Source: Elusimicrobium minutum (GTDB lineage Bacteria; Elusimicrobiota; Elusimicrobia; Elusimicrobiales; UBA9959). Taken from it: a stretch of 54,683 bases of DNA. The translations under genes and the position numbers were made by a program. Shown piece by piece: positions 99 through 14,937 of the stretch (positions within the stretch are counted from its first letter, which is position 1; each line of letters begins with the position of its first letter). The notes below the pieces were generated by a model. It was not told where the DNA came from. It saw only the letters and a list, made by a program, of their open reading frames with translations, and searched no databases. The DNA is taken from positions 1 to 54,683 of the forward strand of contig DYIF01000014.1 of NCBI GenBank assembly GCA_020723765.1, read 5' to 3'.

Positions 99-113
99 TC
101 TTTGGGAGTGTAT

Positions 114-2276
114 ATGAATGAAAAAAAAATTAAAAGAGTCGTTTTGGAAGTAAAGGATATTTCTTGCCCAAGTTGTGCTTTTAACATAGAGAATTATTTT
201 AAAAAAATAAGTGGTATTTTTTCTGTAAACGTGCATGTTGTTACGAAAATGGTTATAGTAAAATACGATTCGGGCAAACTCGGTTTAAATCAAATAAAAA
301 CTGGATTAAAATCGTTAGGATATACCCCGGGGAACGTTTATGAGACAAGCGGAAATATAAATGTCGGAGAATCTTTTGAGAAAGAAGAAAAAAAATATTT
401 TATAAAATTTGTTTTTGCTGGAATTATCGCTTTGTTTTTATTTTTAACTCCGGCGGTTTCTGATAGTATTTCGTTCATATTATCTTTTTTCGTTTGGGCC
501 TACTGCGGGTGGCATTTTCATAGAGGTTTTTATTATTCCATTAAAAATTTTTCCGCAGATATGAATACTCTTGTAAGTTTGTCTTCTACAGTGATGTTTG
601 CATACATTTCTTATTCGACTTTTTATCTTTCGCATAAACATTTTTTTCACTGGCATGAAATATCCATGTTGATAGCGTTTATAAATTTAGGGAAATATTT
701 TGAGTCCAAAACGAAATATGATGTTTCGAGAAGCATAAAAAAAATCTCTTCTTATTTTCCAAAAACCGCAATTAAAGTAGAAAATGGAAAAGAAATGGAA
801 ATAAAAGTTTCCGAAATAAAAAAGGGGGATATAATATCGTTAAAACCTGGGATGGAGGCCTCTGTGGATGGGGTGATAGTGGAAGGTTCGTCTTATTTTG
901 ATCTGCGTCAAATAACAGGAGAAAGCGTGCCGGTATTTAAAAAAAACGGAGAATTTGTATATTCGGGATCCATAAATAATTCTGGTGCCGTTAAAATTAA
1001 AAGCGTTAATGTTGGCGAGGATACTATGATAGCCAGATTGTTAAATTCCATTTCGGACGCTCAAAGCCTAAAACTTAATATCCAGAAAAAAGTGGATAAA
1101 ATAGCAAGATATTTTGTCCCATCGGTTATTGTTGTCGCTTTTTTTTCCGCTGCTTTATGGTATAACGTAGATAAAGATATGTCAATAAATGTTTTTGCCG
1201 CCGTTCTTGCAGTTTCTTGTCCGTGCGCTATGGGGCTTAGCGTTCCGATAGCCGTTATGGTGGGTTTATCGAGAGCGATTAAATTGGGCTTTATTATCAA
1301 TAACCCTTTGGTTATCGAAAATTTTTCCAAAGTGGATGTCGTTTTATTAGATAAAACAGGCACCTTAACGGAGGGTTTTATGAATCTTTCAAAAATAAAT
1401 GCTTTTAAAATTGAGGAGACGGAATTTCTTAAAATTCTTTTAACCGCAGAGTATGATTCCGAACATCTTTTCGCCGATTCTATAAAAAAATATTGTGAAT
1501 CTGAAAATATAAAACCATATAATATATTAGGTTTTAAAAGTTATGTGGGGGAAGGAGTGGAATGCAATAGCGATGTTGGAATAATAAAAGCTGGAAGCCC
1601 TTATTTTTTTACCAAAAACTCGATAGATTTTTCTGTCCATAAAGACGAAATAAATAGCAGTAAGCATCCTTGCGTGCTTCTCGCTTTAAACGGAAGATAT
1701 TTGGGTTATGTTGTTTTTAATGATCCTTTAAGAAAAAACGCAAAAGAAGTTGTAAAAAAATTTATCGAACTTAATATAACGCCAATAATAATTAGCGGGG
1801 ACAGAAGAGAGGTGGTTAAAGAGGCAGCTGAGGTTTTGGGTATAAAAGAGTATTATTTTGAACTGAAACCTGATGAAAAACAAAGCGTTGTTTTAAAATA
1901 TAAAATGGAAGGGAAGAAGGTTATGATGATAGGGGACGGCATAAACGACTCAGCCGCGGTAAATGAAGCAGATATAGGTATATCGATGAAAACATCGAAA
2001 GAAATCACTTCTACAGTAAGCGATATGGTTCTTTTAACCGACGATATATCTGCGGTTTTTAAAGTTATAAAGCTTAGCAATAATGTAAAGAAGATAATAA
2101 ACCAAAATCTTTTCTGGGCTTTTTCCTATAATATGCTGCTTATTCCTCTTTCGGCGGGAGTTCTTTATTATGTAAATGGTTTCTTTATAAAACCTTATAT
2201 GGCGGCTCTGGCTATGGGATTAAGTTCAGTGTCTGTGGTTTTAAATTCCTTAAGAATATTAAAAGTTAAGATGTAA
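114..2276 (+). CDS. copA: Cu(I)-exporting P1B-type ATPase (CopA-like)
   Basis: Cytoplasmic-membrane P-type ATPase, predicted to expel Cu(I). An N-terminal heavy-metal domain carries a CPSC motif (Cys18, Cys21). Then come the TGES actuator motif, the intramembrane CPC (Cys369-Pro-Cys371), the phosphorylation motif DKTGTLT (Asp413) and a GDGIND hinge. Near the C-terminus the last two helices hold a YN pair (FSYNML) and MGLSSVSVV, which with CPC form the P1B-1 copper signature. The usual HP pair of the nucleotide-binding domain is His451-Leu452 here, which is unusual. The start at 114 is chosen because GGGAG at 104-108 sits 5 bases before this ATG; an in-frame TTG at 102 overlaps that site. About 721 residues is normal for CopA with one metal domain. 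Two identical operators flank the promoter, so metal induction is likely. Confidence 0.9.
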   Translation: MNEKKIKRVVLEVKDISCPSCAFNIENYFKKISGIFSVNVHVVTKMVIVKYDSGKLGLNQIKTGLKSLGYTPGNVYETSGNINVGESFEKEEKKYFIKFVFAGIIALFLFLTPAVSDSISFILSFFVWAYCGWHFHRGFYYSIKNFSADMNTLVSLSSTVMFAYISYSTFYLSHKHFFHWHEISMLIAFINLGKYFESKTKYDVSRSIKKISSYFPKTAIKVENGKEMEIKVSEIKKGDIISLKPGMEASVDGVIVEGSSYFDLRQITGESVPVFKKNGEFVYSGSINNSGAVKIKSVNVGEDTMIARLLNSISDAQSLKLNIQKKVDKIARYFVPSVIVVAFFSAALWYNVDKDMSINVFAAVLAVSCPCAMGLSVPIAVMVGLSRAIKLGFIINNPLVIENFSKVDVVLLDKTGTLTEGFMNLSKINAFKIEETEFLKILLTAEYDSEHLFADSIKKYCESENIKPYNILGFKSYVGEGVECNSDVGIIKAGSPYFFTKNSIDFSVHKDEINSSKHPCVLLALNGRYLGYVVFNDPLRKNAKEVVKKFIELNITPIIISGDRREVVKEAAEVLGIKEYYFELKPDEKQSVVLKYKMEGKKVMMIGDGINDSAAVNEADIGISMKTSKEITSTVSDMVLLTDDISAVFKVIKLSNNVKKIINQNLFWAFSYNMLLIPLSAGVLYYVNGFFIKPYMAALAMGLSSVSVVLNSLRILKVKM

Positions 2277-2296
2277 AACATTAAAATAGTTTCGGT

Positions 2297-2325
2297 TTGA
2301 CTGAACTTGTAAAATATAATAAAAT
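2297..2325 (+). promoter_or_regulatory. Promoter of the regulator-feoA-feoB operon
   Basis: TTGACT (2297-2302), a 17-base spacer and TAAAAT (2320-2325), giving a start near 2332, which is the left edge of the dyad operator at 2333-2349. A TATAAT at 2315-2320 is also present, but it is spaced only 12 bases from the -35. Confidence 0.6.
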
Positions 2326-2330
2326 TATTT

Positions 2331-2351
2331 TAGGTTAATAAAGTTAACCAA
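2331..2351. promoter_or_regulatory. Dyad operator of the feo operon, iron-box-like
   Basis: GGTTAATAAAGTTAACC (2333-2349) is a perfect dyad with 6-base arms GGTTAA and TTAACC and a 5-base spacer, preceded by TTA. The half-sites resemble the TTAGGTTAG half of DtxR/IdeR iron boxes, but the arms are spaced further apart than in the classical 19-base box. It covers the predicted transcription start, and the first gene downstream encodes a DtxR/MntR-type regulator, so autoregulation is likely. Confidence 0.65.
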
Positions 2352-2361
2352 AGTTAAGTTT

Positions 2362-2811
2362 ATGAGTAAATTAACCAGTAGCCTTGAAGATTATATAGAA
2401 GCGGCGTATATATTTGAAAAAAAGAACGGATTTTCGCGAATAAAAGAAATAGCGGATTTTTTAAAGGTTAAACTTCCTGCCGTAAATAAAGCGGTAAAAG
2501 AACTCGATAAAAGAGGTTTTTTAACTCATCAAAAATATGGATATATAAAGCTTACGTCTAAAGGGAAAGTTTTAGCGGAAAATATTTTAACAATTCACAA
2601 TATGCTTGTTAAACTATTAAAAATGTTCGATATAAGCGATTACGATTCTAATAGATATGCCTGTTACATTGAGCATATAATCAATAAAAATTCGAAGGAT
2701 ATTTCTTATATAATAGATTATTTTAATTCTAATCCTTTAGAAATAAAAAAGATTAAGGATTTTATTAAAAAGAGGAAAGATGAAAATAAATCTTGCAAAG
2801 ACAAATTATAA
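2362..2811 (+). CDS. DtxR/MntR-family metal-dependent transcriptional regulator
   Basis: A 149-residue regulator with an N-terminal winged helix (opening SLEDYIEAAY; recognition region LPAVNKAVKEL, about 38-48) and a dimerisation/metal domain. It has no C-terminal SH3 domain, so its size matches MntR rather than DtxR. The residues aligned with MntR metal ligands are Asp10, Glu13, His79, Cys101, Glu104 and His105. Asp10 is MntR-like, while the Cys-x2-Glu-His arrangement is that of DtxR (Cys102, Glu105, His106). With feoA and feoB next to it and an iron-box-like dyad upstream, Fe(II)-dependent repression of ferrous iron uptake is the best reading. The Shine-Dalgarno is weak. The 3' end overlaps feoA by 32 bases, suggesting translational coupling. 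Confidence 0.85.
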   Translation: MSKLTSSLEDYIEAAYIFEKKNGFSRIKEIADFLKVKLPAVNKAVKELDKRGFLTHQKYGYIKLTSKGKVLAENILTIHNMLVKLLKMFDISDYDSNRYACYIEHIINKNSKDISYIIDYFNSNPLEIKKIKDFIKKRKDENKSCKDKL

Positions 2812-3007
2812 AAAATTAAAAGTTGTACAGATAAATGGAGGTTATAATATATTAAAGAAACTTAATTCCATGGGGATATTTGAAGGGGCTTTCATTGAAA
2901 AAATAACTTCTTACCATCATGGTCCAGTAATAGTTAAAGTCATGAATTCACAACTTGCTATAGGTAGAGGAATGGCCGAAAAAATAATAGTAGAGGAAAT
3001 GTCATGA
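2780..3007 (+). CDS. feoA: Ferrous iron transport protein FeoA
   Basis: A 75-residue protein with the SH3-like FeoA fold: an N-terminal strand, a KKLNSMGIFEGAFIE segment and a C-terminal IGRGMAEKIIVEE segment typical of the family. It is a small cytoplasmic partner of the FeoB transporter. Its start, preceded by AGAGG at 2771-2775, lies inside the upstream regulator gene. Its stop overlaps the feoB start as ATGA, so the three genes form one tightly coupled ferrous iron operon. Length is normal for FeoA. Confidence 0.9.
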   Translation: MKINLAKTNYKKLKVVQINGGYNILKKLNSMGIFEGAFIEKITSYHHGPVIVKVMNSQLAIGRGMAEKIIVEEMS

Positions 3008-4734
3008 AAATAGTATTGGTTGGAAACCCAAATGTGGGCAAAAGTGTAATTTTTTCTTATCTTACGGGTTATACGGCCGTATCATCAAATTATCCTGGAA
3101 CGACGGTTGATATATTGAAAGGTAAAACTAAACTTTGCGATAGGGAGTGTGAGGTTATTGATGTCCCTGGATGCTATAGTTTGGAGGGAGAAAGTGTTGC
3201 TGAAAAAGTGGCGTCGGAGATAATAAAATCAAAAGATTACGATATAATATTTAATGTAATAGATTCCAATAATTTAGAGAGGAATCTGTTATTAACTTTA
3301 GAGTTAATTGGTTTGGGAAAACCTATCGTTATAATATCCACAAAAACAGATATAGCCAGAAATAAAGGAATAGATATAGATTACAATAAATTATCCGATA
3401 TTCTTGATGTAAAAATATTTCCTGTTGTGGCAACCGCTGGTATAGGGTTTAACGTTTTGGAAAAAGAAATTTATGCGGTTTTTAATAACCTTAAACTTCC
3501 AGTTCCAAAAATGGAAGTTCCTTCGGATATAACCGAAAAGTGGAAAATTATAGGAGAAATAACTTTAAAGGTTCAAAAGATTTATCATAAACATCCATCA
3601 TTTTTGGAAAAATTGGAGGAGATAACCACAACTCCGGTAACGGCTATCCCTTTTTCTTTTGTTTTGATAGTTATGAGTTTTTATCTAATAAGATTTATTG
3701 GAGAGGGAATAATAAATTACATTTTTGATCCTTTATTTAATAATTATTATATGCCTCTTGTCGAGAGATTTTCGTCTTTATTTAACGAAGGATTTTTAAA
3801 AAATATTATTTTCTCAAAAAATATGACTCCACTTGAGGGTTTTTCGATTCTTACTACCGGGGTTTATGTTCCTTTCGTGGTAGTTTTACCTTATGTTTTC
3901 GCGTTTTATTTGATATTAAGCATTCTTGAAGACATAGGATATCTTCCTCGGTTAGCCGTTATACTTGATAGATTGTCTCATAAAATAGGGCTTCATGGTT
4001 ATGGAAGCATACCTTTAATAATGGGGTTAGGATGTAAGGTTCCGGGAATATTTTCTTTGCGAATTTTAGAGTCAAGCAGAGAAAAAATAATAGCTGCTTC
4101 TTTACTTTTTTTAATTTCTCCCTGTATGCCTCAAAGCGCAATGATATTTGCTATACTCTCAAAATATCCGTTAATATACACTGTAATAGTTTTTGTTTAT
4201 ATATTTTTAGTAGGGATATTGGCTTCTTATGTTTTAAATAAGATATTAAAAGGGAGTTCTAACGATCTTTTTATAGAGATACCACCTTATCATAAACCTG
4301 TTTTTAAAAATTTAGTTTTTAAAATAAGATTAAGGATAACTCAATTTCTTTTAGACGCTGTGCCTTTTGTAATGGGTGGAATATTGATTATAAATATTTT
4401 AGATATATTTTCCATCCTTGATTTGTTGTCTAAAATTTCCGCCCCTTTTTTAAGTAAAATTTTTTCTCTTCCCGCTCAAACCTCTTCCATAGTAATGTTA
4501 GGTTTTTTAAAAAAAGATGTGGCTATAACTTTACTTACCCCTTTTAATCTTTCTCTTAAAGAAATAATGGTTTCTTGTTTTTTTCTCGTTACTTATATGC
4601 CATGTTTGGCTTCTATATTCGTTCTTTTAAAAGAGTTGGGGAAGAAACTTACCTTTTACGTTATTATTTTTAACCTTTTAATCTCCCTTGTTTTTACTTT
4701 TATATTTTCTCAGGCCATTAAATTATTCTTTTAA
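3004..4734 (+). CDS. feoB: Ferrous iron transporter FeoB (compact form)
   Basis: Fe(II) permease of the inner membrane with an N-terminal G domain. Seen are G1 GNPNVGKS (residues 7-14), the GTT of switch I, G3 DVPG, and TKTD as the G4 motif. A helical linker leads to a membrane core holding the Gate motifs: the Cys-containing GLGCKVPGIF, and YMPCLASIF near the C-terminus. At 576 residues it is shorter than E. coli FeoB (about 770) and has no C-terminal Cys-rich tail; no FeoC is visible. It is the last gene of the regulator-feoA-feoB operon. A TonB-dependent receptor starts only 25 bases after its stop. Confidence 0.92.
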   Translation: MKIVLVGNPNVGKSVIFSYLTGYTAVSSNYPGTTVDILKGKTKLCDRECEVIDVPGCYSLEGESVAEKVASEIIKSKDYDIIFNVIDSNNLERNLLLTLELIGLGKPIVIISTKTDIARNKGIDIDYNKLSDILDVKIFPVVATAGIGFNVLEKEIYAVFNNLKLPVPKMEVPSDITEKWKIIGEITLKVQKIYHKHPSFLEKLEEITTTPVTAIPFSFVLIVMSFYLIRFIGEGIINYIFDPLFNNYYMPLVERFSSLFNEGFLKNIIFSKNMTPLEGFSILTTGVYVPFVVVLPYVFAFYLILSILEDIGYLPRLAVILDRLSHKIGLHGYGSIPLIMGLGCKVPGIFSLRILESSREKIIAASLLFLISPCMPQSAMIFAILSKYPLIYTVIVFVYIFLVGILASYVLNKILKGSSNDLFIEIPPYHKPVFKNLVFKIRLRITQFLLDAVPFVMGGILIINILDIFSILDLLSKISAPFLSKIFSLPAQTSSIVMLGFLKKDVAITLLTPFNLSLKEIMVSCFFLVTYMPCLASIFVLLKELGKKLTFYVIIFNLLISLVFTFIFSQAIKLFF

Positions 4735-4744
4735 TCAAAAAAAG

Positions 4745-4750
4745 TATAAT
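4745..4750 (+). promoter_or_regulatory. Possible -10 element for a leaderless receptor mRNA
   Basis: TATAAT at 4745-4750 lies 9 bases before the preferred ATG at 4760 of the first TonB-dependent receptor. No Shine-Dalgarno sequence is present, and no strong -35 is visible 17 bases upstream. The receptor may have its own leaderless transcript in addition to readthrough from feoB. Confidence 0.4.
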
Positions 4751-4759
4751 AAATATGTT

Positions 4760-6739
4760 ATGGTTTTTAGCTTGGTATTATATTTTGTTTTTTGGGTAAA
4801 TTGTTATTCTTCTGAAGTTAAACTTTCAATTGAAAAAAATTTAAACCTTTCTTCATCCAATTTGTATGAGGATATGATTATCATTACAAAAGAAGATTTG
4901 AAAGAAGTTTCATGCTCTACTCTCGACGAGAAGATTTCCAAAATAGTAAGCGGAATAAATGTTTCGAGAACCAACGGAATTTATTCGTTTAAGTCTGTTT
5001 TAAGCATGAGAGGGTATTCTTCTTACGAACAGTCCAGGACCCTTGTTTTATTAGATGGGGTTCCTTTAAACAATAAAGCTACCGGTTCGGTTAACTGGAA
5101 TATGGTTTCGATGCTGGATGTGGAAAGGATAGAAATTTTTAAAGGAGCTTCCTCTTTTGTGTATGGTTCAAACTCGGTTAGTGGAGTTATAAACATAATA
5201 ACGAAAAAACCGGATGATAAAACTAAAATTTCGACATTATACGAAACTTACGATACTTTAAAATCCAATGCTACAACATCCCATAAAGGCAAAAAAAACT
5301 CTTTTTTGTTATCTCTTGGCTATCTTAGAGGCGACGGATATGTTTCCACTCCTTTGGCGGATGTTACCGCTTATACGGTTAAAAAATTTGCGGATGAAAA
5401 AAATCTTTTATTCAGATATTTTTTAAAAACTTCTCTCGGCAACTTTGATTTAAGATACTCTTTTTACGACGGCATAAGAGGAGAGGGAGTTAAAATAAAT
5501 ACAGCAAACGGAACAAACAGAACTTTTAATGACAATAATCTGTCTATAAAATGGAATTACGATAAGAAGGAAACGCGATTTGAAACATTAATTTATTATA
5601 GTAATCAGAAATACGAGAGATTAAACGAATATTTTAAAAATAACACTATATATACAAAAATTCAAACCGATTCGGTAAGAGAGGATTTGGGATTAATATC
5701 TTCTGTTCTTTTTAATAGATTTGGCATCCAAAACGTATTAGGAACCGAAATAGGAAAATCTCTCGTTAATTCAAAAGATTTCCAATCCTCTCCTTCCATT
5801 TCTAATTCCTATAACAGAGGAGATGTTTATTTGTATTCCGCTTATTATAATTCTAAATTTGAAATGGATGGGTTTTCATTAATAGCTGGAGTCAGGTACG
5901 ATAAGGCCGGTTTTTATGACGGATATTATTCGAACGATTCCATAAACGTAGTAGGAGTAAACGGTCCGCTTAAGGAAAGCGATTGGGATTTCTTTTCATA
6001 TAAGATTTATATTTCAAAGAAATATTCCGAAGGTTTAAAACATTATTTTTCTTACGGCACTTCATTTAGAGCTCCAGCAATAGAGGATATGTGTTTAAGC
6101 CTTTTGAGAGGAAATAAATTTACCGAAGCAAATCCTTATTTAAAACCGGAAAAAGTAGGTTCTTTTGAAACCGGTCTTGAATTTTCTTTTTTGAACGGTT
6201 TTTATTTAGATCCGGCTATTTATTATGATCTGGGTAAAGATTTTATATATGAGGTTAACGCTCAAAGAACCATAAATATAAACGGAGTAAAACCGGTTTA
6301 TAGAAAGGAAAATATAGCAAAGACAAAAATATACGGATATGAAGTCCCATTTAAATATTCCAATGGATTTCTGTCTTTCATTTTAAACTACTCTTATTCA
6401 AAATCCGAAATTCTCAAATATAAAAATAATATGGCAATAGAAGGAAAAGAGATTTCCTATTCTCCCAACGAATTAATAACTTCCAATTTAAATTTTAATT
6501 TTAAAAACTTTGTTTTGGGGTTATCTTACATTTATAAATCTTCTCAGTTTTCTGACGATGCCAATACTCAAAAGATATCTCCATATTCAGTATATTCCGC
6601 TGATGTTAAATTCTATCCTGACAAATCTCTGGAAGTTTCTTTTTACGTAAATAACTTGTTTGATAAAAGATATCAGGAAAGCTCTACCGACATGTCCCCG
6701 GGGAGAATCTTCGGTATTAAAACTTCCTATATTTTCTAA
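4760..6739 (+). CDS. TonB-dependent outer-membrane receptor, probably iron-related
   Basis: A 659-residue TonB-dependent receptor. From the ATG at 4760 it begins with a hydrophobic signal peptide (about residues 1-18), then a TonB-box-like EDMIIIT. The plug follows (LDEKISKIVSGINVSR, LLDGVPLNN, VERIEIFKG, GVINIITKKP). The C-terminal barrel ends in a terminal Phe, as expected for BAM recognition. A longer start at 4688 would overlap feoB and put a charged stretch before the signal peptide, so I reject it. There is no Shine-Dalgarno, and TATAAT sits at 4745-4750. The ligand cannot be read from sequence; position directly after feoAB suggests an iron chelate, but this is inference. The energising TonB complex is probably the one at 13-14.5 kb. 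Confidence 0.88.
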   Translation: MVFSLVLYFVFWVNCYSSEVKLSIEKNLNLSSSNLYEDMIIITKEDLKEVSCSTLDEKISKIVSGINVSRTNGIYSFKSVLSMRGYSSYEQSRTLVLLDGVPLNNKATGSVNWNMVSMLDVERIEIFKGASSFVYGSNSVSGVINIITKKPDDKTKISTLYETYDTLKSNATTSHKGKKNSFLLSLGYLRGDGYVSTPLADVTAYTVKKFADEKNLLFRYFLKTSLGNFDLRYSFYDGIRGEGVKINTANGTNRTFNDNNLSIKWNYDKKETRFETLIYYSNQKYERLNEYFKNNTIYTKIQTDSVREDLGLISSVLFNRFGIQNVLGTEIGKSLVNSKDFQSSPSISNSYNRGDVYLYSAYYNSKFEMDGFSLIAGVRYDKAGFYDGYYSNDSINVVGVNGPLKESDWDFFSYKIYISKKYSEGLKHYFSYGTSFRAPAIEDMCLSLLRGNKFTEANPYLKPEKVGSFETGLEFSFLNGFYLDPAIYYDLGKDFIYEVNAQRTININGVKPVYRKENIAKTKIYGYEVPFKYSNGFLSFILNYSYSKSEILKYKNNMAIEGKEISYSPNELITSNLNFNFKNFVLGLSYIYKSSQFSDDANTQKISPYSVYSADVKFYPDKSLEVSFYVNNLFDKRYQESSTDMSPGRIFGIKTSYIF

Positions 6740-6758: not shown

Positions 6759-6787
6759 TTGACTATCTTGAATAAAAATGTTACAAT
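6759..6787 (+). promoter_or_regulatory. Promoter of the nickel-uptake operon
   Basis: TTGACT (6759-6764), a 17-base spacer and TACAAT (6782-6787). The -10 lies inside the left part of the dyad operator at 6778-6805, so repressor binding there would block RNA polymerase. Transcription should start near 6794. Confidence 0.7.
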
Positions 6788-6805
6788 TTTAAATATTTGT
6801 AACAC
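6778..6805. promoter_or_regulatory. Predicted NikR operator
   Basis: ATGTTAC (6778-6784), 14 bases, then GTAACAC (6799-6805). As a perfect dyad, TGTTACAA and TTGTAACA (6779-6786 and 6797-6804) flank a 10-base spacer. This differs by one base from the GTGTTAC-N13/14-GTAACAC NikR operator class that I recall from comparative genomics of delta-proteobacteria and other groups. It overlaps the -10, and a nikR gene lies at the far end of the gene group (14533). Nickel-dependent repression of the whole operon is therefore predicted. Confidence 0.75.
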
Positions 6806-6819
6806 TAAAAGGAGACAAA

Positions 6820-8898
6820 ATGATGAAAAAGATGCTTGTTACCTTGGTGTTTGTATCTAACTTAAACCTTTTTTCTCAAAATTATTTTTCAACCAATATG
6901 GATGAAATAATAATAAAAGATAAAGCGGAAAATGAAAATATAGAGTTTTCAAAAAAAGAAATAGAAAAAGCCAAAAATATCTATCTTCCGGATATATTGA
7001 AATATGAGCCCGAAATAAATGTCACAAGAAGGGCTATAACGGGAGATAATGCCGATATGTTATCGATAAGGGGTTTGAGCGGAAGCAGAATACTTTTAAA
7101 TCTTAACGGCAGGTCTTTAAATGCGGCCGGAGTTGTTGGAGGGTATTATAACGATTTTTCTATAATTCCGGTCGATAATATAGAAAAAATACAGGTTATA
7201 AAAGGAGGCGGAGATTTAAAATACGGCAACAACGCTTTAGGCGGAGTTATAAATATAATAACAAAAGAGCCTAAAGAGACTGCGGAGATATCGGTTTTCA
7301 GCGGGTTTTCAGCCGGTAAGGATATCGATTATATGTATAACGAAAGGATCGATATATCAAAAAAATATGATAAATTCGGCTATGTTTTATCGGGAAGTTA
7401 TCAGAAAAGCGATGAGTATTTATGGAATAACGATTTTAAAGCCAAAAATTTAGGCGGTTTTATTTCTTACGATATGCCTTATGATTCTAAGATTTATTTT
7501 AACGTTCAATACACAAATACAGAAAGAGGTTTTATAAGAAATAACAGAAAATCTACAAATCCAAACAGCGCTCTATTTTATGAAAAAATAAACAATGATT
7601 ATCCTTTAGCCTTTGGTGATACTTTAAATCCTTACGGCGGAAATGTTTCTCAACCAGGTCCCAATTCGTACTGGATTAAAGAAAAAACCCTTGTCGATAT
7701 CGGATATAAAATACCGATAAAAGAATGGTTTGCGGAATTTAAGTTATATAAAAATTTTGAAAACAGGTTTGAATATAATTATTCGTCTCATATAACAAGT
7801 CCTACATATCCAAATCCCGACGGAACCCTTATTTTTAAAAGGAAAGTCGAATCCGATAGGTCCTGGGGAACAAATTTAGATTTGTCGAGAGAATTTGAAA
7901 AAAATATTTTTAATTCGGGTTTAGAATATAAATATTTGGGTTATGGAGATATAAATATCTATTATATAGATATGAGTTATGGGTGTTTCGGAACAACCTG
8001 CATAGGAGGCCCCGATTCTCAAAGCGCGGATGTTTATGCCGGTTATTTAAAAGACGAATACAGGGTATCGGATAAAATAAATTTAAACGCCGGAATAAGA
8101 TATGATATTTATAATGTTAATGAAGAAAACAATTCCGGGGTAAAAGAGTTTAAAGAAAAACTTTTAAGCGCATCAATGGGATTAAAATACAATATATCAA
8201 AAACAAACGAACTTTTTTTGACGGCTTACTCAAAATATAGAACTCCAACTATGCCGGAGGTTTACTGGTGGTCTAATAATCAATTGGGATATTCCGGTTC
8301 TTTGAAATCGGAGGACAATAAGGCTTTAGAATTTGCTTATAAAATGAAGATAAAAAATAACTTTTTTGAAATTTCGGCTTATAATTATGATATAGAAAAT
8401 TATATTATGTTCAGGTTTGACCCCAAAAGAGGTACATATAACATAGATAATGTGAAAATATATGGTGGCTCTTTTAAATATTACGCAAATTATAATAATT
8501 TAAATCCTTATCTTAACTTAAGCTTTCAAAAGACAAAAAAAGGAAAAGATTTTTATGATCCGGCAAAATTGAGTGATGATCTTGATTATAGTCCTAAGTT
8601 TAAACTTAATGCAGGGTTTGAGTCTAAATTTGGAAAAAATATTTCTTTAATAACAAATTACAGATATAACGATGTTTCGCATACAATATATGTCTGGCAG
8701 GTTGGCCCTACCAAATATTATAAGCTTGTCAATATGAAATCTTACGATGTCATTGACCTTGAATTAAAGTATAATATTAAAAATGTTACGGCTTCCATAT
8801 ATGCCGATAACATATTCAATGAAAGATATGAGGAAAAATTTGGATACCCTATGAATGGAAGAATTTTAGGCGGTTCAATAACTTTGAGGTTTAAATGA
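6820..8898 (+). CDS. TonB-dependent outer-membrane receptor, probable nickel (or cobalt) importer
   Basis: A 692-residue TonB-dependent receptor. It has a signal peptide (about 1-19), a TonB-box-like DEIIIK just after it, then the plug (LPDILKYEPEINVTRR, ADMLSIRGLSG, IEKIQVIKGG, GGVINIITKEP). The barrel ends IFNERYEEKFGYP...LRFK. AAAAGGAG at 6807-6814 selects the ATG at 6820; a second ATG follows immediately and could be the true start. It is the first gene behind the predicted NikR operator and is followed by a full binding-protein ABC transporter and tonB-exbB-exbD. The substrate is inferred from this context to be nickel or a nickel complex; nothing in the barrel itself proves it. The stop overlaps the next gene as ATGA. 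Confidence 0.85.
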   Translation: MMKKMLVTLVFVSNLNLFSQNYFSTNMDEIIIKDKAENENIEFSKKEIEKAKNIYLPDILKYEPEINVTRRAITGDNADMLSIRGLSGSRILLNLNGRSLNAAGVVGGYYNDFSIIPVDNIEKIQVIKGGGDLKYGNNALGGVINIITKEPKETAEISVFSGFSAGKDIDYMYNERIDISKKYDKFGYVLSGSYQKSDEYLWNNDFKAKNLGGFISYDMPYDSKIYFNVQYTNTERGFIRNNRKSTNPNSALFYEKINNDYPLAFGDTLNPYGGNVSQPGPNSYWIKEKTLVDIGYKIPIKEWFAEFKLYKNFENRFEYNYSSHITSPTYPNPDGTLIFKRKVESDRSWGTNLDLSREFEKNIFNSGLEYKYLGYGDINIYYIDMSYGCFGTTCIGGPDSQSADVYAGYLKDEYRVSDKINLNAGIRYDIYNVNEENNSGVKEFKEKLLSASMGLKYNISKTNELFLTAYSKYRTPTMPEVYWWSNNQLGYSGSLKSEDNKALEFAYKMKIKNNFFEISAYNYDIENYIMFRFDPKRGTYNIDNVKIYGGSFKYYANYNNLNPYLNLSFQKTKKGKDFYDPAKLSDDLDYSPKFKLNAGFESKFGKNISLITNYRYNDVSHTIYVWQVGPTKYYKLVNMKSYDVIDLELKYNIKNVTASIYADNIFNERYEEKFGYPMNGRILGGSITLRFK

Positions 8899-9638
8899 AA
8901 AAATTCTGGGACTTTAAATCAAAGAAATATCCAAGGCCTTTTGATGAGAAAATATTTAAAGAAACTAAAAATGTCATATCAATAATAGAATCTATGGGAG
9001 TTAATTTTTCGGATAAAGATATAATAGATATAGGCTGCGGAACCGGCATATACGGGCTTGTCCTGGCGGAAAAAGCTAAAAGCGTTTTATGTTTGGATTT
9101 TTCGACTGAAATGATAGATGTAGCCAAAAGCGAGATTAAAAACAAGAATATTAAAAACGCATATTGCGTCATATCCGATTTCTCGGATTTTAACGAGAGG
9201 GATTATGAAAAAAAATTCGATATAGCTATCGCTTCTATGACGCCGGCGATAAAAACGGAAAAAGATATTTTAAAAATGGAAGCTCTGTCTAAAAAATGGT
9301 GTGTTTATATAGGCTGGGCCGGGAAAAGAGAAAACAAAATATTCGACGAGGTTTGTTCTTTATTGGGAATAAAACCGTATATTCCAAAAGGTTTTATGGA
9401 AGTTAAGAAAAACTTGGATTATAGAAAAATAAAATATCAAAGTAAAATATTTGAAACATCGTGGGAATGGAAAGGAAATATAGAAGAAGCGGTAGAAGAA
9501 TTTTATCATAGAATAATACTTGATAAAAAAGAAATAGATAAAGAAATAATAAAAAATCTTCTTTTTAAAAAATTTCCGGATGGAAATGTTAAAACCGAAA
9601 CCTTTGCTTCGGAGGGGATAATAGTGTGGTCGGTCTAA
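8895..9638 (+). CDS. Class I SAM-dependent methyltransferase in the nickel operon
   Basis: A 247-residue Rossmann-fold methyltransferase. Motif I is IIDIGCGTGIYGLVLA (about residues 43-58), followed by the acidic LCLDFS and a central CVISDFSDF. No membrane or export signal, so cytoplasmic. It overlaps the upstream receptor by four bases (ATGA) and the downstream binding-protein gene by 13 bases, so it is a firm member of the operon. The C-terminal third (KNLDYRKIKYQS, SWEWKGNIEEAVEEF) is not one I recognise. The substrate is unknown. Its fixed place between receptor and binding protein suggests modification of a metal ligand or of an imported complex, which is inference only. Confidence 0.8.
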   Translation: MKKFWDFKSKKYPRPFDEKIFKETKNVISIIESMGVNFSDKDIIDIGCGTGIYGLVLAEKAKSVLCLDFSTEMIDVAKSEIKNKNIKNAYCVISDFSDFNERDYEKKFDIAIASMTPAIKTEKDILKMEALSKKWCVYIGWAGKRENKIFDEVCSLLGIKPYIPKGFMEVKKNLDYRKIKYQSKIFETSWEWKGNIEEAVEEFYHRIILDKKEIDKEIIKNLLFKKFPDGNVKTETFASEGIIVWSV

Positions 9639-10696
9639 TTTTTTTGTTATTTTTCGTTTTTAATATTAACGCTGAGGTGTTTTTAGACTCTTATAATAGA
9701 AAGATAGAATTAAATAAAACTCCTCAAAAAATAATAGCCGTAGGCCCCGGAGCATTAAGAATCGTTTCTTATCTTGGCGAGATGGATAAATTATGCGGGG
9801 TGGAGAATATAGAGGTAAAATTTCCAAAAGGAAGGCCGTATGCCGTAGCTTATTATGAAAAAATAAAAAATCTACCGATTTTCGGAGAGGGTGGGCCTGA
9901 CAAAAGACCCGATTATGAAAAAATAATAAATCTTAATCCGGATATTATAATCGCATCTTCCATAACGGAAGATTTATTAAAAGAAATGGAAGAAAAAACA
10001 AGAAAAAAAGTTTTTATTGTCGATTACGGCTCTTTAGGAAGTTTTGATACGGAAAAGTTTAACAGCGGCATAATTAAATTGGCTAAAATTTTTAAAAAAG
10101 AAAAAAGGGCAAAAGATATCATTAAAAAAATAAATGGTTATTTGATGGATATAAAAAAAAGAGTAAAAGATAAAAAAGAAGAAAAAAAAGTATATGTGGG
10201 TGGAATCGGTTTTAAAGGTTCTCATGGCATAGTTTCCACTCAAATTGATTACGAGCCTTTTAAAATACTTGGGATTAAAAGCGTAGTCGATAATTTGAAT
10301 AAAGGTAGAGTTAATCATATCTTTATAGACAAAGAAACTCTCGCATTTTTAAATCCAGACATTATTTTCATTGATTTGGGAGGAATAGATATAATTGAAA
10401 GCGATTTTAATTTATCCCCAGACTATTATAAATCTATTTCCGCTTTCAAAAATAACAATGTTTATACAACTCTTCCTTTTAATTATTATACTACGAATGT
10501 TGAAATAGTTTTTATCAACGCTTATTTTATCGGAAAAATTTTCTATCCGGATAGTTTTAAAGATATAGATATTCAAAAAAACTGTTCTAAAATAATGAAA
10601 GATTTCGTAGGCAAAGACGTTTGCGATAGATTTATGGACAATAAAAATTTTTACAAAAAAGTATTTTTTAAAAATGGAAAATTTGAATATATCTAA
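9626..10696 (+). CDS. Periplasmic metal/chelate-binding protein (BtuF/FecB family)
   Basis: A 356-residue ABC-transporter binding protein of the helical-backbone type (Peripla_BP_2). It has a Sec signal peptide with an AxA-like site (about residues 1-16), no lipobox, then KIIAVGPGALRIVSYLGEMDKLCGVE, PIFGEGGPDKRPDYEKIINLNPDIIIAS, and a second lobe with NPDIIFIDLGG. The GTG start at 9626 is chosen for GGAGGGG at 9611-9617, and it overlaps the methyltransferase gene. It should deliver the substrate released by the receptor to the FecCD-type permease encoded next (overlap 23 bases). The family takes cobalamin, haem, siderophores and nickel complexes; nickel is preferred here because of the NikR operator and nikR. 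Confidence 0.85.
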   Translation: MVGLIFLLFFVFNINAEVFLDSYNRKIELNKTPQKIIAVGPGALRIVSYLGEMDKLCGVENIEVKFPKGRPYAVAYYEKIKNLPIFGEGGPDKRPDYEKIINLNPDIIIASSITEDLLKEMEEKTRKKVFIVDYGSLGSFDTEKFNSGIIKLAKIFKKEKRAKDIIKKINGYLMDIKKRVKDKKEEKKVYVGGIGFKGSHGIVSTQIDYEPFKILGIKSVVDNLNKGRVNHIFIDKETLAFLNPDIIFIDLGGIDIIESDFNLSPDYYKSISAFKNNNVYTTLPFNYYTTNVEIVFINAYFIGKIFYPDSFKDIDIQKNCSKIMKDFVGKDVCDRFMDNKNFYKKVFFKNGKFEYI

Positions 10697-11738
10697 CATA
10701 GAAGTTTTTAAAACTTATGAAGATAGAAAAAAAATAAAGTTTTTTTATTTGGTCGTATTTCTATTTTTATTGTTTTTAGGGTTTGTTTTTTCGATTAACA
10801 TCGGAGATTTTAATTTTTTATTTTATAAATTTTTAACGAATAGATATGACGAAACCGAAAAGTATGTTTTTTATAACATAAGGTTTTTAAGGTCTTTTTC
10901 AGCCGTTATTATTGGCTGCGGACTTGGTTTAAGCGGAGCGGTTTTACAGGCGGTTTTAAGAAATCCTATGGCGTCGCCTTATACGCTCGGAATATCCCAA
11001 GGAGCGGCTTTCGGAGCCAGTTTTGTGATAATTTTTTTAGGAGGCGGTTTTTTAAGCTCTCTCGGAGAAGGGGTTATTCTTAAAGGATATTCCGTAATAA
11101 TAGGAGCTTTTATCGGAAGTATTACGGCTATTTTAATAATATTTTTTATTTCCCTTTTAAAATCCTTTTCAAGAAATACGATAATTCTTGCCGGAATAAG
11201 CGTCGGAGCTATTTTTTCTTCTTTAACTATGTTTATGCAATACTTTGCGGATGATATAAAAGCCGCCGCAACTTTTTTTTGGACTTTTGGAGACATATCG
11301 AAGTCTAAATGGATTATGGTTTATATGCTTACTCCGGTTTTAGTCATTTCGGTCTTTTATTTTGTTTTAAAAGGCTGGCATTTAAACCTTTTTGGATTCG
11401 GTGCGGATTTCCTTAAAAACTCAGGAGTAAATTATAAAAAGATTATAATTTTTTCTTTTATTTTTGTTTCTCTTACCGTTTCTTTAATAACCTCTTTTGT
11501 CGGGATAATAGGATTTGTAGGGCTTTTAGCCCCTCATATCGCAAGATTTTTTTCCAAAGGAGACAAAAGATTTTTTATAATTTATTCGTTTATTTTAGGA
11601 GGGTTGATACTTTTAATTTCGGATGTTTTATCGAGAAAATTATTTTACCCTTCCGTTATACCTGTAGGAATTATAACTTCTTTTTTCGGAATAATAGTGC
11701 TTTTATATATAATTTTTAAGGGCTATGATAGAGATTAA
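10674..11738 (+). CDS. FecCD-type ABC transporter permease
   Basis: A 354-residue inner-membrane permease of the BtuC/FecCD family, with about ten membrane segments. It has family motifs GLGLSGAVLQAVLRNPMASPYTLGIS-like (around residues 80-105), the large GISVGAIFSSLTMF segment and the coupling-helix region GFVGLLAPHIARFF. Its start lies within the binding-protein gene and its stop overlaps the ATPase gene by 14 bases, so the three are translated together. It is the membrane channel of the predicted nickel-complex importer. The sequence alone does not separate nickel from iron or corrinoid substrates. Confidence 0.9.
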   Translation: MENLNISNIEVFKTYEDRKKIKFFYLVVFLFLLFLGFVFSINIGDFNFLFYKFLTNRYDETEKYVFYNIRFLRSFSAVIIGCGLGLSGAVLQAVLRNPMASPYTLGISQGAAFGASFVIIFLGGGFLSSLGEGVILKGYSVIIGAFIGSITAILIIFFISLLKSFSRNTIILAGISVGAIFSSLTMFMQYFADDIKAAATFFWTFGDISKSKWIMVYMLTPVLVISVFYFVLKGWHLNLFGFGADFLKNSGVNYKKIIIFSFIFVSLTVSLITSFVGIIGFVGLLAPHIARFFSKGDKRFFIIYSFILGGLILLISDVLSRKLFYPSVIPVGIITSFFGIIVLLYIIFKGYDRD

Positions 11739-12474
11739 AAATCTTTGTTTTTCATACGGTAAAGGAAGAAAAATTTTCAAAAGTCTTTCTTTTGCGATAA
11801 AAGAAAAAAAACTTACTTGCATAATAGGGCCTAACGGTTGCGGTAAATCTACTTTAACCAAAATAATATCCGGAATAATAAGCGATTATAGCGGAGATGT
11901 CTCGGTAAAAAATAGAAATATAAGAGAATTATCGTTTTTCGAAATGTCAAAAATCGTATCTTATCTGCCTCAAAAAATTTTTTACGACCCGGATATAACT
12001 GTAATAGAATCTTTGATAAGCGTTTTAAGCAAAGATTTTACGTTCGAGTTCGGGCCTAAACAAAAAAAACAAATAGAAAAAGCAATAGATAGGTTTGCAT
12101 TACATGAAATAAAAGACAAAAAGCTTTCCGAGATAAGCGGAGGGGAATTGCAAAGAGTTTTTATCGCAATGTCAGGAGTAAGGGACTGCGAGTTTTATGT
12201 TTTTGACGAGCCGTTAAATAATCTCGATATAAAGAATCAAATAGATATAATGAGTATAATAAAATCTTTTTCTTTCGAAAGAACGGTAATAGCCGTGGTT
12301 CACGACATAAATATGGCTTTAAAATTTGCCGATGAAATCGTTTTTATGAAAAACGGAGATGTTTTGTTTCAAATAGAGCCATTAAAAGTAAGCGAAGATA
12401 TGATAAAAAAAACTTTTGATATAGATTGCAATATTATTAACGCTCCCAAAAACGAAAAAATAGTTTTGGTTTAA
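11725..12474 (+). CDS. ABC transporter ATPase (FecE/BtuD type)
   Basis: A 249-residue ATP-binding subunit. Walker A is GPNGCGKST (about 35-43), the Q-loop is SYLPQK, the signature is ISGGELQRV, Walker B is YVFDEP, the D-loop is NNLDI and the switch His is in AVVHD. Length is typical of FecE/BtuD proteins. It forms the importer with the preceding binding protein and permease genes. The next gene begins 10 bases after its stop with its own strong Shine-Dalgarno. Confidence 0.92.
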   Translation: MIEIKNLCFSYGKGRKIFKSLSFAIKEKKLTCIIGPNGCGKSTLTKIISGIISDYSGDVSVKNRNIRELSFFEMSKIVSYLPQKIFYDPDITVIESLISVLSKDFTFEFGPKQKKQIEKAIDRFALHEIKDKKLSEISGGELQRVFIAMSGVRDCEFYVFDEPLNNLDIKNQIDIMSIIKSFSFERTVIAVVHDINMALKFADEIVFMKNGDVLFQIEPLKVSEDMIKKTFDIDCNIINAPKNEKIVLV

Positions 12475-12484
12475 AGGAGGATTT

Positions 12485-13066
12485 ATGAAAGACCTTAAAA
12501 GATGCGTAGAATATCACGGGCATAAATGCATGGGTCTTTTAATGGGTTATAGAGCCGCAAAGTACGCTCTTAAGATTTTAAAAGAACAAACAGCAAAAGA
12601 TGAAGAAATAGTTTCGATTGTCGAAAATTCTTCTTGCTTTGTGGATGCCGTAAGCGTAATCACCGGATGCACTTTCGGAAAAGGGAATCTTATTTTTAAA
12701 GATTACGGCAAAATGGCTCTTTCTCTAATAAGCAGAAAAAATGGTAAAGGGATAAGAGTTTATCTGCGCTCGGAGAATCTTAAAAGAGATAAAAAAGACA
12801 TAGAACTTATGAATAGAGTTTTAGCCGGAAAAGCGAGTAAAAAAGAAATTAGCATTTTTAATGAGATGAAAAAAAACAGAGAAAAGGAATTTATGAAAAT
12901 TAAAGATGAAGAGTTGTTTAAGGTTTACGATTTCAAAGGAGAAATTCCTCCTAAAGCTAAAATATATAATTCGGTTAAGTGCGATAAATGCAAAGAGCTT
13001 GTTATGGAGACGAGAATTAAGGATGTAAAAGGAAAAAAGATTTGTACAAGTTGTTTAAATGGATAA
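12485..13066 (+). CDS. FmdE-family protein with C-terminal zinc finger
   Basis: A 193-residue cytoplasmic protein. Residues 1-110 match the FmdE fold: CVEYHGHKCMGLLMGYRAA, then SSCFVDAVSVITGCTFGKGNL. The C-terminus is a treble-clef-like zinc finger with CDKC and CTSC pairs (about 167-190). AAAGGAGG lies just before the ATG. FmdE was first named for a protein linked to formylmethanofuran dehydrogenase. The family is widespread in anaerobes lacking that enzyme, where its role is unclear. The conserved His and Cys suit metal or metallo-cofactor handling, and its place between the ATPase and tonB suggests a job with the imported nickel. This function is inferred. Confidence 0.8.
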   Translation: MKDLKRCVEYHGHKCMGLLMGYRAAKYALKILKEQTAKDEEIVSIVENSSCFVDAVSVITGCTFGKGNLIFKDYGKMALSLISRKNGKGIRVYLRSENLKRDKKDIELMNRVLAGKASKKEISIFNEMKKNREKEFMKIKDEELFKVYDFKGEIPPKAKIYNSVKCDKCKELVMETRIKDVKGKKICTSCLNG

Positions 13067-13613
13067 AAAATTCTTTTTAATATTTTGTTTTTCTTTTATC
13101 GTTCATCTGTCTTTGTTATTGGTTCCTTTTGGGAAAGTTTCGGCTTTTAATAATGAAAATAATGTAAAAATAAACTATTTTTCTATCAAAAGAAGTAATT
13201 ATAAAAGGTACGCAAAAGTATTTGATTCTGAAATTAATAGAGAAAAAAATCCCAATAATATTGAAAAAAATGCAAGTGATTTCTCCGAAACAGACTCAAA
13301 AAACGAAATGGAAGAAAGAGGTGTGGCGGAATTTGAAATGAACGATTTAAACGGTCCTAAAATTTACGATTTTAATCCTAAATATCCTTTTGCATTAAAA
13401 AAATTGAAAAAAGAGGGGAGCGTAAAACTAAAACTTTTAATAGATGAAAATGGTTTTTTGGTCGATAAAGAAATCATTTATTATACCGACGATTTGTTTT
13501 TAAAAAGCGTTTTGGAAGCTTTACATAAAGCCAGGTTTTCCTGTGCGGTTATAAATGGGAAACCAATCAAATCTTATGGAGTTTTAAATATAATTTTTAA
13601 ATTAGAGGAGTAG
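13059..13613 (+). CDS. tonB: TonB energy-transducing protein
   Basis: A 184-residue TonB. A single N-terminal membrane anchor (FCFSFIVHLSLLLVPF, about 7-22) is followed by roughly 80 hydrophilic residues rich in Asn, Glu and Lys. The C-terminal TonB domain (KYPFALKKLKKEGSVKLKL, ... ALHKARFSCAVINGKPI) closes the protein. The periplasmic linker is short and lacks the proline-rich rod seen in E. coli TonB. The anchor contains a His (IVHLSL), matching the functionally important SxxxH segment of TonB. It overlaps the FmdE-like gene by 8 bases and is followed by exbB and exbD. It probably energises the adjacent receptor, and perhaps also the one at 4760. Confidence 0.85.
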   Translation: MDKKFFLIFCFSFIVHLSLLLVPFGKVSAFNNENNVKINYFSIKRSNYKRYAKVFDSEINREKNPNNIEKNASDFSETDSKNEMEERGVAEFEMNDLNGPKIYDFNPKYPFALKKLKKEGSVKLKLLIDENGFLVDKEIIYYTDDLFLKSVLEALHKARFSCAVINGKPIKSYGVLNIIFKLEE

Positions 13614-13616
13614 TTT

Positions 13617-14126
13617 ATGTTATTTGATTTTTATCTAAAAGGCGGTATGTTGATGCACTTTATTTTGTTTTGCTCCATAGTAGGCATGTCAATTTTTATA
13701 TATAAAAGTTTAGAGTATAGAAAAATTTATAAATTATTGTCAGATTTTAATTCTTTTAAAGATTTGGTATCGCTTAAAAATAAAAACGAAGAGGAACTCG
13801 AGATATTCTGGTCTAAAAAAACAAATGAGATAGAAAAAGGTATTTCGACTCTAAATTTAATGGCAAATTTATCTACCCTCTTGGGTTTAACAGGAACGGT
13901 TACTGGTATGATAAAAACTTTTATGGTAATAGCCGGCAGCGAATTTACTTCTCCGAAAATGCTGGCTCAAGGGATATGGGAGGCTCTTTTGACCACCGCA
14001 TTCGGGCTTTTTGTAGCTATACCGATACATATAGGAGTTCATTATCTTGAAAGAAAAGCGGATAGCATTATGTTTATTTTAAGAGAAAGGATAATAGAGT
14101 TTAAAAATGGAATTGAAAATACCTGA
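13617..14126 (+). CDS. exbB: ExbB/TolQ-family proton channel subunit
   Basis: A 169-residue member of the MotA/TolQ/ExbB family with three membrane segments: one near the N-terminus (MHFILFCSIVGMSIFIY), then a pair around residues 80-105 and 118-145. The conserved LATLLGLTGTVTGMI-type motif appears as NLSTLLGLTGTVTGMIK, followed by the AxGIxEALxTTAFGLxVAIP motif, here GIWEALLTTAFGLFVAIP. GAGGAG at 13604-13609 selects the start. It powers TonB using the proton motive force. It is compact compared with E. coli ExbB (244 residues). It overlaps exbD by 20 bases. Confidence 0.9.
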   Translation: MLFDFYLKGGMLMHFILFCSIVGMSIFIYKSLEYRKIYKLLSDFNSFKDLVSLKNKNEEELEIFWSKKTNEIEKGISTLNLMANLSTLLGLTGTVTGMIKTFMVIAGSEFTSPKMLAQGIWEALLTTAFGLFVAIPIHIGVHYLERKADSIMFILRERIIEFKNGIENT

Positions 14127-14493
14127 TAGAAAACATAAGCATTTGGATTTAACCCCGCTAATAGATGTTATGTTTAATCTTCTTCTTTTTTTTCTTCTTA
14201 CGTATCAGGTTTCAAAATATTCGGAAATAAAAATAAACCTTCCTTCTTCAAACTCCGATAACCCTGTTTCAAAGGGAGTGGAAATAACTGTAAAGTCGGA
14301 TTCGGAAATTTATTTTAATGGGAAAAAAACGAATATTAAAGAAATAGATAAATTTTTATCAAGTGTAAATAAAAGTGAAAATATCTTAATTAAATCCGAT
14401 AAAGAAGTTAAAATTGATTTGATTGTTAAGATTATCGATGAGATTAAACGGAACAATTTTGAAAATATAGGAATAATTACCTATAAAAATTAA
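14107..14493 (+). CDS. exbD: ExbD/TolR-family TonB-complex subunit
   Basis: A 128-residue protein with a single N-terminal membrane helix. The helix holds the essential Asp in LDLTPLIDVMFNLLLFFLL (Asp about residue 20), followed by a periplasmic domain ending in IKRNNFENIGIITYK. With ExbB it makes the proton-driven motor for TonB. Size and layout are typical. It is the last gene of the long operon that begins at 6820; nikR follows after 39 bases with its own -10 element. Confidence 0.9.
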   Translation: MELKIPDRKHKHLDLTPLIDVMFNLLLFFLLTYQVSKYSEIKINLPSSNSDNPVSKGVEITVKSDSEIYFNGKKTNIKEIDKFLSSVNKSENILIKSDKEVKIDLIVKIIDEIKRNNFENIGIITYKN

Positions 14494-14520
14494 AAATTTT
14501 AATGATAAACATTTATTTTA

Positions 14521-14526
14521 TATAAT
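14521..14526 (+). promoter_or_regulatory. -10 element of a probable leaderless nikR transcript
   Basis: TATAAT at 14521-14526 ends 6 bases before the nikR ATG at 14533, so the transcription start should coincide with the start codon. No Shine-Dalgarno sequence precedes the ATG. The -35 region is poor (TTTAAT at 14498-14503). No copy of the 6778-6805 dyad is present here. Confidence 0.5.
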
Positions 14527-14532
14527 CTAATT

Positions 14533-14937
14533 ATGGGAAAATTGGTAAGATTCAGCATATCGGTAGACGAAGATATTTTAAAGGAATTCGACGATAAAAT
14601 ATCGGCGGAAAACTGCGATAATCGTTCGAAAGCAATATCCAATTTGATAAACAAATATCTGGTCGAAAAAAAAGCGGTTTACGGAGAAAAGGTGGCGGGA
14701 GCCATAGGGCTTGTTTACGACCATCACAAAAGAATGATAGGGGACAAACTTACCGCCATACAACACGACCATCACCATATAATAATCTCAAGCCAGCATA
14801 TACATCTTACCCACGATACTTGCTTTGAAATAATAGTCGTAAAAGGTAAAGGCAAAGAAATAGACGAGCTTTTTAATAAACTCAAAAAAGTAAAGGGGAT
14901 AATAAACTCATATCTCACGGTCGCTTCTTCGACTTAA
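14533..14937 (+). CDS. nikR: Nickel-responsive regulator NikR
   Basis: A 134-residue ribbon-helix-helix/ACT regulator. Residues 1-45 are the DNA-binding ribbon-helix-helix (LVRFSISVDEDILKEFD). The C-terminal domain carries the high-affinity nickel site: His78, His89, His91 and Cys97, matching E. coli His76, His87, His89 and Cys95 with an offset of two. All four ligands are intact. It should repress the operon starting at 6820 when nickel is plentiful, by binding the dyad at 6778-6805. It is probably transcribed from its own promoter, as well as possibly by readthrough from exbD. Among NikR homologues the size is standard. Confidence 0.93.
   Translation: MGKLVRFSISVDEDILKEFDDKISAENCDNRSKAISNLINKYLVEKKAVYGEKVAGAIGLVYDHHKRMIGDKLTAIQHDHHHIIISSQHIHLTHDTCFEIIVVKGKGKEIDELFNKLKKVKGIINSYLTVASST

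What the first reader, a model, noticed from the sequence alone, without database searches (positions are those of the whole stretch)
6778..6805. NikR-type operator overlapping the -10 of the receptor operon
ATGTTAC-N14-GTAACAC lies across the -10 of a TTGACT-17-TACAAT promoter and differs by one base from the GTGTTAC-N13/14-GTAACAC operator class I recall for NikR outside enterobacteria. A NikR with all four nickel ligands is encoded at 14533. This ties an outer-membrane receptor of unknown ligand to nickel.
Basis: partly seen in the sequence, partly recalled or inferred. Interest (0 to 1): 0.6.

Follow-up and report, generated by a model that had tools for sequence, protein, structure and literature searches.

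The report
Nickel-switch DNA site before uptake operon
A short mirror-image DNA sequence in an uncultured Elusimicrobiota bacterium is very probably the docking site of the nickel sensor NikR, which would use it to switch a complete outer-to-inner-membrane metal uptake operon (and its own gene) on and off; the switch is of a known type, but in a new lineage and on a rare operon.

Summary
The dyad ATGTTAC-N14-GTAACAC is real (6778-6805), is the only site with ≤1 mismatch (spacer 13 or 14) in the 2.1-Mb draft genome, and lies on the -10 of TTGACT-17-TACAAT, 15 bp before a ten-gene same-strand array: TonB-dependent receptor, methyltransferase, binding protein, FecCD permease, ATPase, FmdE-like, TonB, ExbB, ExbD and, last, NikR itself. 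The remembered operator class is correct (PMC545781). Independent support: in family relatives, all 11 N13 sites with ≤1 mismatch abut nikR; about 20 nikR promoters share the architecture in which the left half-site forms the -10; the three other genomes carrying this operon (4 of 341 in the phylum) have a matching promoter/operator. In several relatives the dyad-nikR unit precedes the CbiM/NikM nickel/cobalt permease. The window genome encodes a [NiFe]-hydrogenase with intact nickel ligands and HypA, but no CbiM. Nickel as the receptor's cargo remains inference; three relatives have NikR copies that lost nickel ligands but keep an operator, so the motif alone does not prove nickel. New member of a known kind.

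The parts
6759..6764 (+). -35 element TTGACT
   Evidence: Read directly; TTGAC at 17-18 bp from the -10 recurs in 11 of about 20 related nikR promoters and in the four promoters of this operon
6782..6787 (+). -10 element TACAAT, sharing TAC with the left half-site
   Evidence: TAC(A/T)AT in 14 of about 20 related nikR promoters
6778..6805 (+). NikR-type operator ATGTTAC-N14-GTAACAC
   Evidence: class consensus in PMC545781
6820..8898 (+). TonB-dependent outer-membrane receptor (Plug + beta-barrel), TonB-box-like DEIIIKD near the N-terminus
   Evidence: Pfam PF07715/PF00593; orthologues 52-53% identical in three relatives; TonB box by eye
8895..9638 (+). class I SAM-dependent methyltransferase, substrate unknown
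   Evidence: Pfam; model pLDDT 88.6; Foldseek hits are generic, mostly small-molecule methyltransferases
9626..10696 (+). periplasmic binding protein (PF01497), same family as solved structure 2etv (annotated iron(III) ABC binding protein)
10674..11738 (+). FecCD/BtuC-type permease
   Evidence: PF01032 E 2e-78
11725..12474 (+). FecE-type ABC ATPase
12485..13066 (+). FmdE-like protein with C-terminal zinc-finger-like segment
   Evidence: PF02663 E 8e-42; similar to 2gvi
13059..13613 (+). TonB
   Evidence: PF03544 E 1e-9
13617..14126 (+). ExbB/TolQ-family motor protein
   Evidence: TIGR02796/TIGR02797 similarity, below cut-offs
14107..14493 (+). ORF of 128 aa in the ExbD position
   Evidence: position only; not family-tested here
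14533..14937 (+). NikR, last gene of the array

Best explanation
The site is the operator of the NikR encoded at 14533. With nickel bound, the NikR tetramer would grip the two half-sites ATGTTAC and GTAACAC and block RNA polymerase, because the left half-site contains the first three bases of the -10 box. This would repress a ten-gene operon (6820-14937) that encodes a self-contained uptake route: outer-membrane receptor, its own TonB-ExbB-ExbD energiser, binding protein, FecCD-type ABC importer, two accessory proteins (methyltransferase, FmdE-like) and NikR itself. When nickel is scarce NikR falls off, the operon is expressed and nickel, probably as a chelate, is imported for the cell's [NiFe]-hydrogenase. 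Shown here: the site, its position on the promoter, its conservation and its association with nikR. Inferred: binding, nickel dependence, repression, single-transcript operon and nickel as cargo.
For: Site unique in the genome at 1 mismatch or fewer. In the 37 genomes of the family (own included), 11 of 11 N13 sites with 1 mismatch or fewer are at nikR: ten directly upstream, one between nikR and the next gene. Same promoter/operator composite before about 20 of 23 related nikR genes examined and before the orthologous operon in G013, G021, G027. NikR with four ligands in the window and in most relatives that have the dyad. The dyad-nikR unit precedes CbiM/NikM in G012, G025, G028, and CbiM neighbours nikR in 5 of the 6 genomes that have CbiM. 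The own genome has a [NiFe]-sulfhydrogenase-type large subunit with RICGIC/DPCISC ligands, HycI-type protease and HypA but no CbiM. Known precedents: NikR-repressed TonB-dependent nickel receptors and FecCD-type nickel ABC importers in Helicobacter (PMC3856676; PMC5140060).
Against: No binding or expression data. Three relatives keep the dyad or a variant of it and the same DNA-contact strand but their NikR copies have lost nickel ligands (G015, G022, G019), so the operator class alone does not prove nickel sensing. The spacer is 14 here but 13 in the relatives. In G021 and G027 the right half is GTGYTAC, i.e. a direct rather than inverted repeat. Other nickel permeases than CbiM were not searched for. 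No part of the receptor or binding protein was shown to bind nickel.
Confidence: 0.82

Rival explanations
1. NikR does control the operon, but the cargo is not nickel itself: for example a cobalt, molybdate/tungstate or iron complex, or a cofactor, whose uptake is adjusted to the nickel state.
For: The binding protein's closest solved relative is annotated as iron(III)-binding (2etv); the permease and ATPase resemble iron and B12 importers; FmdE is named after a molybdenum enzyme operon; a methyltransferase is unexplained by bare nickel uptake.
Against: NikR in the same array, [NiFe]-hydrogenase demand without CbiM, and relatives in which the same dyad-nikR unit precedes CbiM/NikM. FecCD-type nickel import is known (PMC5140060). 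No riboswitch of any Rfam family in the window.
Confidence: 0.15
2. NikR binds the site but activates, or only autoregulates at this promoter without a strong metal response.
For: NikR can activate in Helicobacter pylori (hspA, hpn: PMC3856676); some family NikR copies have lost ligands.
Against: The site covers the -10, the classic position for repression, in about 20 promoters; the window NikR keeps all four ligands.
Confidence: 0.05
3. The dyad is a chance palindrome or the site of an unrelated regulator.
For: About 0.7 dyads of this quality are expected somewhere in the genome by chance; an exact dyad occurs in one genome where no NikR relative was found (G048).
Against: Position: chance in this gap is about 3e-5; conserved in the orthologous operons, and the same composite marks nikR genes across the family.
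Confidence: 0.03

Closest known systems
NikR operators of delta-proteobacteria, GTGTTAC-[N13/14]-GTAACAC (Rodionov et al. 2004, PMC545781)
   Same: Same half-sites (one mismatch) and spacing; in front of nickel uptake genes; variant half-site orientations also reported there
   Different: There before nikMNQO/nikKMLQO and hydAB; here before a TonB-receptor/FecCD operon in Elusimicrobiota, with the left half-site built into the -10
Helicobacter pylori FrpB4/FecA3 and H. mustelae NikH, NikR-linked nickel TonB-dependent receptors (PMC3856676, PMC5140060)
   Same: Outer-membrane TonB-dependent receptor predicted to be under NikR
   Different: Sequence relation of the receptors not tested; here receptor, energiser, ABC importer and regulator form one gene array
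H. pylori NiuBDE / H. mustelae CeuE-FecDE nickel ABC importer (PMC5140060)
   Same: FecD-type permease, FecE-type ATPase and a CeuE-like binding protein, with nickel-related regulation
   Different: Homology beyond family level not tested; extra methyltransferase and FmdE-like genes here

Membership tests
NikR | ribbon-helix-helix N-terminus plus NikR_C domain | tested here: met
   PF01402 and PF08753 above cut-off; NF003381 126 bits over 105, NF002815 over cut-off. TIGR02793 cut-off not reached (85.9 of 175.45)
NikR | four nickel ligands (three His, one Cys) | tested here: met
   H78, H89, H91, C97 aligned to E. coli 1q5v
NikR | nickel-dependent DNA binding | not testable with these tools
   needs gel shift or footprint
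NikR operator, GTGTTAC-[N13/14]-GTAACAC class | consensus dyad with 13-14 bp spacer | tested here: met
   one mismatch of 14, N14
NikR operator, GTGTTAC-[N13/14]-GTAACAC class | associated with nikR or nickel genes and not scattered | tested here: met
   unique in genome; 11 of 11 N13 sites with 1 mismatch or fewer in the family at nikR
TonB-dependent receptor | plug and beta-barrel domains | tested here: met
   PF07715, PF00593
Nickel TonB-dependent receptor (FrpB4/FecA3/NikH type) | nickel transport | not testable with these tools
   regulatory and context evidence only
Nickel TonB-dependent receptor (FrpB4/FecA3/NikH type) | sequence homology to known nickel receptors above the general family level | not tested
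   reference sequences were not fetched; nearest solved chains are CirA and BtuB by the plug region

The most novel reading that the evidence does not exclude
The operon is a new type of nickel-chelate import system in which the co-regulated methyltransferase (with the FmdE-like protein) makes, modifies or strips the nickel-carrying ligand that the receptor takes up.
Probability: 0.2. Interest if true: 0.65.

Novelty: new member of a known kind. Interest (0 to 1): 0.42.

Why it matters
It assigns a probable metal to an otherwise unassigned receptor/ABC operon, extends the delta-proteobacterial NikR operator class to Elusimicrobiota with strong comparative support, and gives a defined 60-bp DNA and a 134-aa protein for a direct test. 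It also points to a compact gene set (receptor, dedicated TonB-ExbBD, importer, methyltransferase, FmdE-like) in which the form of imported nickel, an open question for nickel receptors (PMC3856676), could be studied.

Tried and rejected
Chance dyad: rejected on position and conservation. Further regulon members in the own genome: none with ≤1 mismatch; the two-mismatch hits are inside open frames. Riboswitch control: no Rfam match in the window. Receptor structure: AlphaFold model too poor (pLDDT 45), not used. Methyltransferase fold search: only generic methyltransferases at 11-15% identity. Receptor scan of genome contigs found nothing; the binding-protein scan found only the three Elusimicrobiota operons. 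Plasmid relatives of the binding protein are about 30% identical without an annotated TonB receptor or NikR nearby. Papers: none found joining Elusimicrobia, nickel and TonB, and none of the listed papers on nickel and TonB mentions FmdE.

Full report
OBSERVATION. The dyad, its coordinates and the promoter are as described. The left half-site ATGTTAC (6778-6784) supplies TAC of the -10 TACAAT (6782-6787), 17 bp after TTGACT. It is the only site with ≤1 mismatch to GTGTTAC-N14-GTAACAC in the 2,109,140-base draft genome, and the N13 version has none. A dyad this good is not by itself rare in a genome (about 0.7 expected for both spacings) but is improbable in this gap (about 3e-5; 0 of 100,000 shuffles). 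The pattern search's dinucleotide shuffles of the window at ≤3 mismatches were unremarkable, so the case rests on position and conservation.

SURROUNDINGS. Ten same-strand genes with overlaps or gaps of at most about 40 bp follow: receptor, methyltransferase, PF01497 binding protein, FecCD permease, ATPase, FmdE-like, TonB, ExbB-like, an ORF in the ExbD position, NikR. That they form one transcript is inferred from spacing.

COMPARATIVE TEST. NikR relatives were found in 30 of 61 genomes of the order, all in the window's own family. Most of the fetched loci of the closer NikR relatives show the dyad with ≤2 mismatches right at nikR, and the promoter listing shows the full composite (-35, 17-18 bp, GTGYTAC merged with TAC(A/T)AT, 13-bp spacer, GTAACAC-like half, start codon a few bases later) before about 20 of 23 nikR genes inspected; G014b, G032b and G008 lack it and G010 is weak. 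Genome-wide, 11 of 11 N13 sites with ≤1 mismatch in this family are at nikR, ten directly upstream and one between nikR and the next gene in G016; family f2, where no NikR relative was found, has four hits. For N14 the only hits in the family are the window's and one in G014 not followed up. The operon itself, traced by its binding protein, occurs in 4 of 341 genomes of the phylum. Its promoters: G013 TTGACG-17-TACAAT with TTGCTAC-N13-GTAACAC; G021 TTGACA-17-TACATT with ATGCTAC-N13-GTGTTAC; G027 TTGACA-18-TACATT with ATGCTAC-N13-GTGCTAC (the G027 row is mis-sliced because the automatic start codon lies inside the operator, and was read). In the last two the right half is in direct orientation. 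As GTGTTAC and GTAACAC share GT...AC, a half-site bound by a symmetric dimer may tolerate either orientation (inference); Rodionov et al. also reported NikR half-sites in reversed orientation (PMC545781).

LINK TO NICKEL. The dyad-nikR unit precedes CbiM/NikM with PDGLE domain in G028 and G025 and, by position, in G012; CbiM adjoins nikR in 5 of the 6 genomes of the order that have it. The window genome has no CbiM but encodes a sulfhydrogenase-type [NiFe] large subunit with both CxxC ligand pairs, the small subunit, a HycI-type protease and HypA, and a second, complex-I-like large subunit with intact CxxC pairs. Counter-evidence: NikR copies in G015, G022 and G019 keep the RFGVS DNA-contact strand and a dyad or dyad-like element but have lost two or more nickel ligands. 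More divergent NikR-like proteins (G002, G007, G017, G018, G024, G029) lack the ligands, and no dyad was found at their loci.

MECHANISM. Most likely nickel-bound NikR occludes the -10 and represses the operon and itself; nickel shortage lifts this. The operon would import a nickel complex through receptor, TonB-ExbBD, binding protein and FecCD-type importer. NikR-repressed TonB-dependent nickel transport and FecD/FecE-type nickel import are established in Helicobacter (PMC3856676; PMC5140060). The methyltransferase fold (model pLDDT 88.6) resembles many methyltransferases without a specific match; its role, and that of FmdE, are open.

TAXONOMY. The contigs of the orthologous operons match public Elusimicrobia/Elusimicrobiota records in length (JAAYVI010000037.1, DYLH01000011.1; JAJUJA010000060.1 corresponds to G027), so the window comes from an Elusimicrobiota draft genome.

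VERDICT. Observation confirmed, interpretation supported. The operator is a new member of a known class; the operon is a rare and unusually self-contained NikR-linked uptake system whose nickel cargo is likely but unproven.

Noticed in passing
L038, L039, L035 (G015, G022, G019): NikR relatives that keep the RFGVS DNA-contact strand and a dyad (exact in G022) but have lost two or more of the four nickel ligands; they may sense something else or act without metal.
   Followed up: partly
L046 about 15940-15970 (minus strand); L111 about 1582-1612: In two of the four operons the right half-site is GTGTTAC or GTGCTAC, making the operator a direct repeat.
   Followed up: partly
L049 2549-3502 (G001) and L059 1985-2953 (G016): A PF07670 'Gate' membrane protein of about 320 aa follows nikR (after a TonB receptor in G001); in G016 a second dyad (3041-3067) precedes it. 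Candidate unrecognised nickel permease.
   Followed up: partly
L052 2097-3564, L054 10176-12572, L065 8025-9491: Other dyad-nikR units are followed by a PF13557 outer-membrane-like protein and a protein of about 231-235 aa (DsbD_2-like in L052), with a DUF882 protein next in L052 and L054.
   Followed up: partly
window 102-6739: Neighbouring metal genes: HMA-domain P-type ATPase, DtxR-family regulator, FeoB and a second TonB receptor, apparently a separate iron-type unit without the dyad.
   Followed up: partly
G048:C6:8584-8610 and 8635-8661 (L071): An exact GTGTTAC-N13-GTAACAC and a two-mismatch copy 24 bp away in a genome where no NikR relative was found; possibly a repeat or another regulator's site.
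   Followed up: no
G014:C53:1146-1173: The only other N14 dyad with 1 mismatch or fewer in the family; context not examined.
   Followed up: no
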